Shown here in pieces: positions 1 to 61,204 of a stretch of 64,000 bases of DNA. Made by a program: the position numbers and the translations under genes. Numbering within the stretch: position 1 is the stretch's first letter; the number at the start of each line of letters is the position of its first letter. The stretch is from Daejeonella sp. H1SJ63 (GTDB lineage Bacteria > Bacteroidota > Bacteroidia > Sphingobacteriales > Sphingobacteriaceae). The DNA is taken from NCBI RefSeq assembly GCF_029360775.1, contig NZ_JARKMZ010000002.1:124001-188000 (forward strand), given 5' to 3'. The notes under the pieces are model-generated. The model ran no database searches. It was not told the DNA's origin and saw nothing but the letters and a program-made list of their open reading frames with translations.

Positions 1-2
1 AT

Positions 3-2213
3 TTAAAGAAGGTGAATTTTTTCTTTGGATATAATGGTTCAGGTAAATCAACAATTGTTAAATATCTATATAATCTAAGCCTTGAAGAAAATCTTAAAGC
101 CCAGCAATACAATGACTGCTCACAAATTGGTTATGATGAGACTACTCATCAAATAATAGTTTTTGATGAGAACTTTACTGAAGTTAATTTCAATAGAAAC
201 CCTGTATTAAAGGGAGTATTCTCATTAAACCAAACGAATGCTATTATTGATGGACAAATTGCAACCGAGGAAACTTCAATAAATGAATACAATGAATTAA
301 TCCGAAAGAAATCCATCATTATTGAAAATGTAGCCACTGATAAACGGCAAAACCAAAATGCATTATTAGAACACTGCTGGAGACAAAGAAACTTATTTGC
401 AACGTTTACAAAAATCAATCTGATTCATTCAGGAAGCAAACCAAACAACTTACAGGAAATAAAAAACAAACTGACTAATCCTCCTGCTACAGTTCCAACA
501 ATTACACAACTATCTGAACGCTATCAATTACTTTACGAAACAGAATTAAAACAAATTAATCAAAGTGTCAATTCTAATCTTTACAAAGAGTTAAGACTAA
601 TTGAAATAAAGTTACAGAAGTTACTGCAAGAAGTTATTGTCGGTAATGAAGATGTAGATATTGCCGCTTTGATTGTGAAAATAAATGCAAGAAGTTGGGT
701 TGAAACAGGTGTTCAGTATGTAGACAAAACCGATGGTATTTGTCCATTTTGCCAACAGGATACAATAGATGATAATTTGAAGGAGCAATTCAATAAGTAT
801 TTTGATTTGACCTACAAAGAAAAAATTGGTGAATTGGTCGCATTACAAACAGATTACAAACAAAAATCAGAAGCATTTTTATCAAATATTATTAGCGTCC
901 AGAATGAATTCAACCCTAATAATTTGGTGTCAAATATTTATCTCAATCTGCAAAGTCATTTTAATAATAACTTTATAACAGTTGCAAATAAAATTGAAAA
1001 ACCTAACGAGAGGAAAAGCCTAGTTCCCCTTAATTCTTTCCAAAATGACCTTTCAAGTATTGTAAAGGAGATTAAAGAAAACAATAAAACATTTTCAGAA
1101 CTAAATACTAATAGAACAAATTTGACTTCTGATATATGGCATTTTATGGCTTCAAAGTGCAAATCAGAAATTGATGAACTGGCATCAAAGGAATTAAAGT
1201 ATCAGAGCATAACCAACTTGGCAAATGTTTTAATTGCAGACTACAAAGTAAAAATTAATGCATCAAAACAATCCATTGAAATACTCAGAAGCCAAACTGT
1301 AAATACGAAAGAAGCTGTAGACAACATCAACCTTATTTTAAGAAACGCTGGTTTTGACGGTTTTGAAATTGGCGAAAAAGATACAGTAAATAATATTTCA
1401 CAGTATTATCTGAAACGACAAAACACTGCGGACGGCAATCCGATTTTTAAAAGTTTGAGCGAAGGAGAAAAGAATTTTATTTCGTTCTTGTATTTTTTTC
1501 AACTCTGTATTGGAACAGATGACATTCAGAACAATGGCAACAAGAAAAAAATAATAGTTATTGACGACCCTGTTTCAAGTTTAGATAGTCAGGCTTTGTT
1601 TGTTGTTTCAACTTTGATTCACAATTTGATTTTAAGAAAAGGAGATAATCCGAAAGCAGACAAAAAGCTTCTGAAAAATGATAAAATTTCGCAGGTCTTT
1701 ATTTTCACTCATAACCTTTATTTCTATAAAGAGGTATCATTTGATAAAAGACCCATTTGTGCGGACTATTGGCATCTTAGAATAATTAAGATAAACAACA
1801 AAACATCAATAAAGGGCGAATACAACAAAACTATTTATGACGACTATTCATTGCTTTGGAACACGATTAAAGAATTGAAGGCAAACATTCCAACCACTAC
1901 TTCTTTGAACATTGTAATTGCAAATTCAATGAGACGAGTTATTGAGAGCTATGTTAACTTTATAGGTTATGGTAAAGACTCTTGGGCTTCTCTTTTTAAT
2001 TATAATCAAAATGATCCTTCCTATTATATTAAGTGTGCTTTCATTTCTACTATAAATGATGAAAGTCACAAAATTACAGCATTGGACAGTGTCTATTATC
2101 AAAAAATAATTAATGAACAGCCCCAAATTTTATTTGACGTGTTTGTAGAAATATTTAAGTCAATTGGCAAGGAACATTATGAATTAATGATGGACGAACA
2201 AATTCAGCCATAA
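3..2213 (+). CDS. RloC/PrrC-like ATPase, candidate anticodon nuclease (5' truncated)
   Basis: Large AAA_13-type ABC ATPase whose reading frame runs into the left edge, so the N-terminus is missing; the first in-window GTG is at 12 (used for numbering here). Seen: Walker A GYNGSGKST (residues 6-14), a long helical middle with a CPFC zinc-hook-like motif (C244/C247), ABC signature SLSEGEKN (481-488), Walker B IIVIDDP (514-520), and H-loop His567. The C-terminal part carries R641-x3-E645 and H686 in a NDESH context, resembling the Arg-Glu-His anticodon nuclease triad of PrrC/RloC. ABC ATPase plus zinc hook plus triad is the RloC layout. Known family role: tRNA cleavage as phage defence or stress response. 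A type I restriction locus, common beside such genes, would lie outside the window. The ATPase call is firm; nuclease activity is inferred. Confidence 0.75.
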   Translation, partial: LKKVNFFFGYNGSGKSTIVKYLYNLSLEENLKAQQYNDCSQIGYDETTHQIIVFDENFTEVNFNRNPVLKGVFSLNQTNAIIDGQIATEETSINEYNELIRKKSIIIENVATDKRQNQNALLEHCWRQRNLFATFTKINLIHSGSKPNNLQEIKNKLTNPPATVPTITQLSERYQLLYETELKQINQSVNSNLYKELRLIEIKLQKLLQEVIVGNEDVDIAALIVKINARSWVETGVQYVDKTDGICPFCQQDTIDDNLKEQFNKYFDLTYKEKIGELVALQTDYKQKSEAFLSNIISVQNEFNPNNLVSNIYLNLQSHFNNNFITVANKIEKPNERKSLVPLNSFQNDLSSIVKEIKENNKTFSELNTNRTNLTSDIWHFMASKCKSEIDELASKELKYQSITNLANVLIADYKVKINASKQSIEILRSQTVNTKEAVDNINLILRNAGFDGFEIGEKDTVNNISQYYLKRQNTADGNPIFKSLSEGEKNFISFLYFFQLCIGTDDIQNNGNKKKIIVIDDPVSSLDSQALFVVSTLIHNLILRKGDNPKADKKLLKNDKISQVFIFTHNLYFYKEVSFDKRPICADYWHLRIIKINNKTSIKGEYNKTIYDDYSLLWNTIKELKANIPTTTSLNIVIANSMRRVIESYVNFIGYGKDSWASLFNYNQNDPSYYIKCAFISTINDESHKITALDSVYYQKIINEQPQILFDVFVEIFKSIGKEHYELMMDEQIQP

Positions 2214-2250: not shown

Positions 2251-2390
2251 TAACGCCAGCAGGTAACAGCAGCTACAAGAAATTGGCGGTTCAGTGGTTA
2301 AATGAAGCTTTGTGCTTCGTATCAAGTTCAGTTGTGGCAGACAGTTTTCGTCTTCGAAATCGCCAACTTCTTGTAGCTGCAAAACGTTAG
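2251..2390. repeat. Imperfect inverted repeat, integron attC-like
   Basis: Arms GCAGCTACAAGAAATTGGCG (2269-2288) and its complement at 2361-2380 pair at 19 of 20 positions around a 72-nt centre. The outer ends are TAACG (2251) and CGTTAG (2385-2390), the sort of inverted core found at integron attC ends. It sits exactly between two accessory genes. Function is inferred; a MITE or a transcription-termination structure are alternatives. Confidence 0.45.
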
Positions 2391-2427
2391 TGTTTATGCT
2401 AAAAGACAAAAAACAAATGATCTACAA

Positions 2428-2919
2428 ATGGAAAACTATTTACAAATAACTGATCATTGGGTGACAATAGTTTCCGGGACATTTACTATCATCTTGACAT
2501 TAATTGCGACTTGGCTCGCGTGGAAAACATTTTATTTATCCCAAAAAGACCAACAAAAGACAATAGCCATTAATGAGCTTAGGACACAGACCAAGCATCT
2601 AGAAGATCTATTGTTATATCAAATCCAACCTCGATTTACAACAGAAATGAGATCGAGTGACTATATGGACATAGTTAATATTGGAGGGGACTGTTACAAT
2701 TTACAAATTACCTCAGAAGAAGAAACATTTGGTAAACATGGAAATCCATTTGAAAAAATGGACAATTTTTTTTCTTCATCAACAAAAAGGGCAATAAATT
2801 ATTCAATACATGGAGACAGAAATTTCATATTTACATTCGAGGACAAGTTTGGGAATAAAATGAGACAAACTCTCCATACATCCAAAAGAAAGTTCTCGAA
2901 TCTTGAAATTTTAAAATGA
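2428..2919 (+). CDS. Hypothetical single-pass membrane protein
   Basis: A 163-residue protein I do not recognise. One hydrophobic segment lies near the N-terminus (about residues 10-32), followed by a short charged, probably helical stretch (about 35-60) and a soluble C-terminal domain of about 100 residues rich in Asn, Phe and Ser. This predicts a membrane-anchored protein with a cytoplasmic domain. The gene is AT-rich, stands alone, and lies between CGTTAG at 2385 and CGCTAAC at 2930, so it looks like one mobile cassette. The start is the ATG at 2428, just past the repeat. Function unknown. Confidence 0.6.
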   Translation: MENYLQITDHWVTIVSGTFTIILTLIATWLAWKTFYLSQKDQQKTIAINELRTQTKHLEDLLLYQIQPRFTTEMRSSDYMDIVNIGGDCYNLQITSEEETFGKHGNPFEKMDNFFSSSTKRAINYSIHGDRNFIFTFEDKFGNKMRQTLHTSKRKFSNLEILK

Positions 2920-2929
2920 AAGCACAAAA

Positions 2930-3055
2930 CGCTAACAAGGGGTTTGCAATAACCGACACCTGAACATGGCAAAGCTAGGATCCTGGCGAAAATATCTCAA
3001 GCCCTTGGACTAAATTTGATTTGGTTGAAGCCTGTTTTTTTATCAATACGCTAAC
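2930..3055. repeat. CGCTAACAA direct repeat pair, degenerate attC-like site
   Basis: CGCTAACAA occurs at 2930-2938 just after the stop of the small membrane protein gene and again at 3049-3057. The first copy continues into AGGGGTTTGC, but I find no matching complementary right arm, so this would be a broken site. The same CTAAC core closes the element at 2385-2390 in inverted orientation. Confidence 0.3.
2953..3054 (+). pseudogene. Possible remnant of an XRE-type HTH regulator
   Basis: Between stops in the frame of 2953, the translation includes ILAKISQALGLNLIWLK, which resembles the last helices of an XRE/HTH_3 domain (pattern LAKIAxALGVSLDxLLK). There is no start codon and no upstream half. 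It lies inside the degenerate repeat region. The match is short and could be chance. Confidence 0.25.
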
Positions 3056-3251
3056 AACTAATCGGCCAATTACGAGATTGTTTATTTTAGATTACCGGAA
3101 CTTTTATTTTCATGAAAACAATTATCTTGGGTGAGAGAAATTTGTCCAATTTGAGCAACAACTGATTATAGTCGCCAACAGTTACTTGCTCTACTAACTC
3201 AACCTAAATCAAAAACCTCTTAACCCCCTTCTCTCATAAATCCCAAACAAA
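3056..3251. other. Intergenic spacer, no recognised feature
   Basis: About 200 nt of AT-rich sequence before the creatininase-family gene. I see no coding frame of note, no clear TAnnTTTG promoter and no strong hairpin. Confidence 0.5.
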
Positions 3252-61127: not shown

Positions 61128-61140
61128 AAGATATTAGTAT

Positions 61141-61204
61141 TTAGTACATAGTATTTAGATCGTTTAAATCTAAATACTATGTACTAAGTACTTTGTACTT
61201 AGTA
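61141..61204 (+). promoter_or_regulatory. Two mutually exclusive hairpins between atpA and atpG
   Basis: TTAGTACATAGTATTTAGAT (61141-61160) pairs perfectly with 61168-61187 around a 7-nt loop. The end of that right arm, TACTAAGTAC (61182-61191), can instead pair with GTACTTAGTA (61195-61204), 4 nt before the atpG ATG. Only one can form at a time. Could be a translational switch, or a dispersed repeat that landed here. Confidence 0.5.

What the first reader, a model, noticed from the sequence alone, without database searches (positions are those of the whole stretch)
2251..3057. Integron-cassette-like unit: small membrane gene between attC-like repeats
A 140-nt imperfect inverted repeat (20-bp arms, 19 matched) ends in CGTTAG just before the gene at 2428; the gene ends just before CGCTAACAA, and CGCTAACAA recurs at 3049. 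Inverted CTAAC/GTTAG cores flanking a lone orphan gene are the geometry of a gene cassette with attC sites. No integrase is visible, so this could be a cassette array relic (CALIN) or a Bacteroidota-specific variant.
Basis: partly seen in the sequence, partly recalled or inferred. Interest (0 to 1): 0.6.

Follow-up and report, generated by a model that had tools for sequence, protein, structure and literature searches.

The report
Bacteroidota integron cassettes, unusual integrase
The repeat is the recombination site at the end of a mobile gene cassette that carries a likely anti-phage gene, and it belongs to a little-noticed kind of integron, common in Bacteroidota, whose integrase lacks the part thought necessary for using such sites.

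Summary
The hairpin at window 2259-2392 is real. It closes an upstream cassette carrying a PDC-S06/AAA_13 candidate defence gene that begins 100 nt before the window. The small gene (2428-2919) sits in a second cassette whose own attC keeps only its 5' half.

The site belongs to a family found in 99 of 198 Bacteroidota genomes sampled. Its stem covaries strongly. Its mismatches are mostly bottom-strand G.T wobbles. Cassette starts complement the R'' box of their own attC, as expected of excisable circles.

No genome tested has an IntI above the curated cut-off. A distinct tyrosine recombinase sits beside the arrays: 13 of 17 such loci have attCs, against 0 of 20 control recombinases. It groups with IntI against Xer but lacks IntI's I2 domain, and the attCs lack extrahelical bases. 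The window's genome has such a recombinase; the site just downstream of it resembles the insertion site of the window's cassette and of other lone cassettes.

It works like an integron but fails the usual IntI definition, which may explain why surveys missed it. Recombination itself is not shown.

The parts
1..2213 (+). Gene of cassette 1: 759-aa AAA_13 / PrrC-like ATPase, PADLOC candidate defence family PDC-S06. It starts 66 nt before the window (G000:C12:123934). The cassette itself starts at G|TTACCTGC, 100 nt before the window (G000:C12:123900), directly after an attI-like site.
2259..2267 (+). R'' box GCAGGTAAC of attC-1; complements the cassette-1 start GTTACCTGC (9 of 9)
2259..2392 (+). 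attC-1, complete attC-like site of the Bacteroidota family (R1 124.5 bits); L'' 2269-2288, L' 2361-2380, spacer 1 nt (2268) against 5 nt (2381-2385)
2386..2392 (+). R' box GTTAGTG; predicted exchange point between G2386 and T2387
   Evidence: sequence; junction register
2387..3050 (+). Cassette 2 (approximate right end). Its start GTTAGTGTTT complements AAACGCTAAC at 2927-2936 in 9 of 10 positions, the tenth being a G.T wobble.
   Evidence: sequence
2428..2919 (+). 163-aa orphan with one hydrophobic N-terminal stretch (read by eye); no Pfam match above cut-off and no PADLOC match
2930..2960 (+). 5' half of attC-2 (R'' CGCTAAC, L'' AAGGGGTTTGC...); the 3' half is not recognisable
3048..3057 (+). 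Second ACGCTAACAA; not part of an attC that folds; meaning unknown

Best explanation
The feature is the attC of an integron-type gene cassette, in a cassette system that is widespread in Bacteroidota. Cassettes of about 0.5-3.7 kb, several of them carrying defence genes, end in a hairpin-forming attC. The system is run by an IntI-related tyrosine recombinase that lacks the IntI additional (I2) domain. Inferred cycle: the bottom strand of attC folds; the recombinase cuts at G|TT; the cassette leaves as a circle whose R' is completed by its own start; it re-inserts at the attI beside the integrase gene, at another attC, or at attI-like sites elsewhere in the chromosome. The window's cassette 1 sits at such a remote attI-like site. 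Shown from sequence: hairpin family and covariation, cassette-end complementarity, arrays, recombinase adjacency, attI-like similarity, presence/absence between related species. Inferred: recombination itself, use of single-stranded bottom strands, and that this recombinase does it.
For: Family: 24 stretches in genome contigs match the 5' motif; of these, L021 and L026 have no second arm by eye; the other 22 are titled Bacteroidota (or genera of it) or Ignavibacteria. Covariation 0.476 against 0.139 shuffled, 0 of 500 shuffles, and 0.106 or less when slid (33 hand-picked sites). Of 660 stem cells, 67 are top-strand A.C (bottom-strand G.T) and only 10 top-strand G.T; A24.C109 in 32 of 33. Cassette ends: 40 consecutive attC pairs average 5.11 of 6 complementary positions against 3.08 permuted, 0 of 10,000; 31 of 40 score at least 5. 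An upstream start was found for 58 of 81 attCs, 8 downstream, 11.2 with swapped R''. Recombinase: 13 of 17 loci with attC against 0 of 20 controls. Genome level: both 63, recombinase only 7, attC only 36, neither 92, p = 9e-18. Catalytic R, K, H, R, H, Y invariant or nearly so in 18 rows. attI-like sites in the same genome at 74-81% identity. Other cargo at the orthologous site in relatives. A published homology-independent insertion with a 140-bp attC-like 3' end in Riemerella (PMC13148043).
Against: No recombination was observed. 23 of 81 attCs had no matching start and 9 of 40 array pairs scored under 5 of 6. Four of the 17 recombinase loci had no attC: two have the integrase near a contig end (L103, L107), one is an IS91-associated type on a 3-kb contig (L104), one is unexplained (L108). 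36 of 99 attC-bearing genomes have no such recombinase. 50 of the 67 A.C cells come from two positions, and the sites are related, so that count is not independent. The recombinases are not one clade without IntI: class A needs 2 changes on the tree. The attI site is inferred from position and similarity only. R1 was built from hand-picked sites. Attribution to I2-less enzymes rests on adjacency.
Confidence: 0.84

Rival explanations
1. The cassettes are real but were made and moved by classical IntI in trans; the adjacent I2-less recombinases are bystanders such as IS91-associated or ICE integrases, and the arrays are CALIN relics.
For: CALINs are common where no intI is found (passages of PMC8618304 and PMC9668308). 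36 of 99 attC-bearing genomes lack the recombinase. An IS91-linked integrase sits beside the own-genome one.
Against: 0 of 26 genomes, and not the own genome, have a TIGR02249 match over cut-off. The recombinases sit at the head of arrays with an attI-like junction right after the gene. Control recombinases have no attCs nearby. R1 does not recognise the attCs of a class 1 integron.
Confidence: 0.08
2. The hairpins are MITE- or REP-like repeats or terminators near gene ends, without cassette mobility.
For: Hairpins lie about 20 nt after stop codons, where terminators would lie; many sites share a similar loop region.
Against: The start-to-own-R'' complementarity across whole genes is not expected of a MITE or terminator. 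The full element occurs once in its genome. Arrays have unrelated genes. Relatives differ at the same site.
Confidence: 0.04
3. The enzyme recombines double-stranded sites like Xer; the folded-strand signature is a by-product.
For: No I2 domain (spacing 64-66 aa against 106 in IntI1); structure matches XerA and IntI4 alike. In print I2 is the gain that allowed single-strand recombination (PMC7790495, passages).
Against: Two-arm covariation, a conserved bottom-strand wobble and an asymmetric 1-nt against 5-nt spacer in 30 of 33 sites are hard to explain without folding.
Confidence: 0.2

Closest known systems
Integron (IntI, attI, attC cassettes; chromosomal or mobile)
   Same: Array of mostly single-orientation genes each ending in an imperfect inverted repeat with AAC/GTT outer cores; exchange at G|TT; integrase at the head of the array; attI-like site; cassettes of defence and resistance-type genes
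   Different: Integrase lacks I2 and is below the TIGR02249 cut-off; attC stems have no extrahelical bases; spacer 1 nt against 5 nt; many integrases have an extra N-terminal domain and lie in the same direction as the array
CALIN / lone cassettes at secondary sites (attG)
   Same: The window's two cassettes lie far from the integrase, after a site that resembles attI
   Different: One intact and one half attC, so the two-attC rule is not met; the likely cognate recombinase is on another contig of the same genome
Complete integron of Salinibacter ruber M1, the only Bacteroidetes example named in the passages read of IntegronFinder 2.0 (PMC9024848)
   Same: Phylum or sister group
   Different: Found with the IntI model; the system here is not
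Homology-independent insertion of aph(3')-IVb in Riemerella anatipestifer (PMC13148043, one section read)
   Same: Bacteroidota; gene with short 5' end plus about 140-bp attC-like 3' end inserts as a unit
   Different: Recombinase not identified there; the sequence was not compared here

Membership tests
Integron | Integrase of the tyrosine recombinase family at one end of the array | tested here: met
   16 of 20 recombinase loci have attCs; without 3 chosen because an attC was seen nearby, 13 of 17; controls 0 of 20
Integron | IntI-specific additional (I2) domain | tested here: not met
   19 of 19 recombinases have 64-66 aa between the K box and HxLR; IntI1 has 106. The predicted core shows no extra helix there
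Integron | attI next to the integrase where cassettes start | tested here: inconclusive
   Junction G|TT right after the integrase stop, by eye in 13 of 13 printed same-direction loci; similar sites in the own genome; no functional test
Integron | attC with R''/R' cores (AAC/GTT) and two-arm folding | tested here: met
   the wider RYYYAAC/GTTRRRY consensus (recalled) holds only in part
Integron | Extrahelical bases in the attC L stem | tested here: not met
   Hand-assigned 20-pair L stem without one-sided bulges in the consensus; spacer lengths
Integron | Cassette start complements R'' of the same cassette's attC | tested here: met
Integron | Recombination activity | not testable with these tools
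   needs an assay
Integron | Cassette promoter Pc | not tested
   not examined
CALIN | Two or more attCs under 4 kb apart, no integrase beside them | tested here: inconclusive
   one intact attC and one half attC in the window
MITE | Many near-identical short copies in the genome, no gene cassettes between | tested here: not met

The most novel reading that the evidence does not exclude
Bacteroidota carry a phylum-wide integron lineage, present as cassettes in about half of sampled genomes, that recombines folded single-stranded attC sites without the I2 helix and without extrahelical bases. Strand choice would be set instead by a bottom-strand G.T wobble and a 1-against-5-nt spacer, perhaps with the enzyme's extra N-terminal domain. 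It would be either an ancestral pre-I2 state or a separate solution. It would move defence genes between genera and insert them at attI copies scattered in the chromosome.
Probability: 0.5. Interest if true: 0.92.

Novelty: new variant of a known kind. Interest (0 to 1): 0.82.

Why it matters
I2 is described as the gain that turned Xer-like enzymes into single-strand recombinases (PMC7790495), and one earlier survey kept only proteins with the additional domain (PMC2426708). An I2-less enzyme paired with bulge-less attCs makes that view directly testable. If it works, integrons are not rare in Bacteroidota: the sample gives 99 of 198 genomes with sites. It also gives a candidate mechanism for the unexplained homology-independent gene uptake in Riemerella, and a route by which defence systems (PDC-S06, PDC-M48, type II R-M, Gabija) move.

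Tried and rejected
MITE/REP reading: rejected. Classical IntI in the genome: none over cut-off; the 8 matches in G000 leave the stretch between about positions 182 and 237 of the model unmatched. Rfam: one match, a plant microRNA family at 18.9 bits against a gathering score of 144; chance. Pattern search in viral contigs: 0. Recombinase relatives in viral contigs: 80 loci kept at 32-45% identity, used only as an alignment for folding. The N-terminal domain could not be named: its pLDDT was mostly under 50; a likeness to HARP domains is from memory only. blastn of one attC against plasmids found only two records. Two of the nine places (L009, L011) look like coding sequence by eye. No enrichment of defence genes was tested; the cargo list is examples.

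Literature: listings show no paper on I2-less integron integrases in Bacteroidota. The library holds only openly licensed PMC papers, no bioRxiv; supplements were not available.

Full report
Observation. The hairpin is present and folds far better than shuffles on the bottom strand. The short cores alone are not above chance. The stretch after the small gene does not fold as an attC.

What lies around it. Upstream is a 759-aa AAA_13 protein of the PADLOC candidate defence family PDC-S06, then the hairpin, then the 163-aa orphan. Searching the own genome with 2225-2400 found one more place, an exact 28-bp match on contig C21. It follows two genes of the candidate defence family PDC-M48, and its attC lacks the 3' half.

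Family. The 5' motif with up to 3 mismatches occurs in 8 of 301 family genomes. With two free positions it gave 24 stretches in genome contigs. Apart from L021 and L026, which show no second arm by eye, these are titled Bacteroidota (or genera of it) or Ignavibacteria and mostly show both arms. I aligned 33 hand-picked sites. The 20-pair L stem and 4-pair R stem covary: score 0.476 against 0.139 shuffled, and at most 0.106 when slid. Position 24/109 is A.C on the top strand in 32 of 33, which is T.G on the bottom strand; over the stem, A.C outnumbers G.T by 67 to 10 of 660 cells, 50 of the 67 from two positions. The spacer is 1 nt against 5 nt in 30 of 33.

Cassette signature. In an integron, R' is completed by the cassette's own start, so the start should complement R'' of the attC at the cassette's far end. 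For the window family, a strict form of the start motif GTTACCTGCAAGC lies upstream on the same strand in 19 of 30 loci examined (L007 and L023 are the same genome, so 18 distinct). For 40 consecutive attC pairs in arrays with many different R' boxes, the mean is 5.11 of 6 against 3.08 permuted, 0 of 10,000; 31 of 40 score at least 5. For 81 attCs, a start was found upstream in 58, downstream in 8, and in 11.2 on average with swapped R''. Within cassettes the start codon lies a median 41 nt after the start and the stop a median 20 nt before the attC.

Recombinase. No IntI over the curated cut-off in the own genome or in 26 genomes. Some recombinases scored about 80-130 bits with the model's I2 stretch unmatched. 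I fetched 20 such neighbourhoods. Three (L099, L100, L109) were chosen because an attC had been seen nearby, so I leave them out of the main count: 13 of the other 17 hold an attC at E up to 0.01. The genomes themselves had been chosen for carrying attCs. Twenty neighbourhoods of other tyrosine recombinases from the same genomes hold none at E up to 1. In an even draw of 198 genomes of the phylum, attCs (E up to 1e-5) occur in 99 and the recombinase (E up to 1e-75, a class that includes IS91-linked types) in 70; both in 63, neither in 92. Read by eye from the truncated lists: of the 24 best-scoring recombinases, 14 have a listed attC within 7 kb downstream on the same strand, one has it 1.1 kb upstream, nine have none listed; none of 67 low-scoring rows has one within 10 kb.

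Nature of the recombinase. The catalytic residues are invariant or nearly so in 18 rows. IntI1 and one phage IntI fall on the recombinases' side of a 100/100 branch against 19 Xer proteins. The spacing between the K box and HxLR is 64-66 aa, against 106 in IntI1. The predicted core (mean pLDDT 79.4; most core blocks above 90; the N-terminal 87 residues poor) matches XerA and the integron integrase IntI4. Many have an N-terminal extension of unknown role.

attI and the place of the window's cassette. In 13 same-direction loci a G|TT junction lies just after the integrase gene, by eye. In Algoriphagus lacus the first cassette start GTTAGCGG complements the following attC. In the own genome the 101-bp query from the integrase stop matches three other places at 74-81%: C12:123819-123902, directly before cassette 1 of this window, plus C21:96514 and C20:41426. 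A fourth, C21:447982, aligns too but was not found by that search. The C21:96514 site is followed by a GIY-YIG gene and an attC; C20 by an SDR gene without an attC hit. So lone cassettes of this genome sit at copies of its attI. The integron on C30 carries a type II R-M cassette, with an IS91 element inserted at the attI.

Mobility. Five same-genus genomes keep the downstream creatininase gene. None shows cassette-1 or cassette-2 genes by blastn in the stretches fetched. One of them (L231) keeps the attI-like end TATATACAAG at the same place, followed by another gene and a weak attC, 32.8 bits. A Chryseobacterium plasmid carries an integrase and six attC hits. R1 does not see the attCs of a class 1 integron.

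Print. IntegronFinder 2.0 names one complete integron in Bacteroidetes proper, Salinibacter ruber (PMC9024848, passages). The 11 taxon attC models of PMC8352920 include no Bacteroidota (passages). PMC2426708 kept only proteins with the IntI additional domain or patch (passages). PMC7790495 presents I2 as the gain that allowed single-strand recombination (passages). PMC2727003 shows that EHB removal weakens strand choice without abolishing recombination (passages). PMC13148043 (one section) reports insertion of a gene with 27 bp 5' and 140 bp attC-like 3' sequence, without homology, in Riemerella. I did not compare that sequence.

Verdict. It works like an integron. By the usual definition, which requires the IntI additional domain, it is not one. 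I call it a new variant. Recombination, bottom-strand use and the enzyme's role remain inferred.

Noticed in passing
L061 5655-7702 (G000 C30): IS91-type element (integrase 277 aa and Y2 transposase 400 aa) inserted right at the CAAG end of the own attI, between integrase and cassettes.
   Followed up: partly
L136 (NZ_CP041688.1, Chryseobacterium sp. SNU WT5 plasmid): A plasmid carries an integrase of this kind plus six attC hits, a possible mobile integron of this type.
   Followed up: partly
L004 from about 3480; L232, L233, L234: A repeat with words such as GCGCAGC...CTACGGATTA and TAAATGA occurs near several of these loci and seems to replace the 3' half of the attC on C21; MITE-like.
   Followed up: no
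window 3048-3057: Second ACGCTAACAA 119 nt after the first, at the right edge of cassette 2; not explained.
   Followed up: no
L107, L108, L110 and other class A recombinases: N-terminal extensions with a motif like RIAVYF...ARWS...WHLPD, sometimes repeated; function unknown.
   Followed up: partly
cassette proteins of alignment A3: One cassette protein matches Streptomycin adenylyltransferase (PF04439) and others match transporters, so cargo goes beyond defence.
   Followed up: no
window 61136-61192: A 25-nt inverted repeat, 96% complementary with a 7-nt loop.
   Followed up: no
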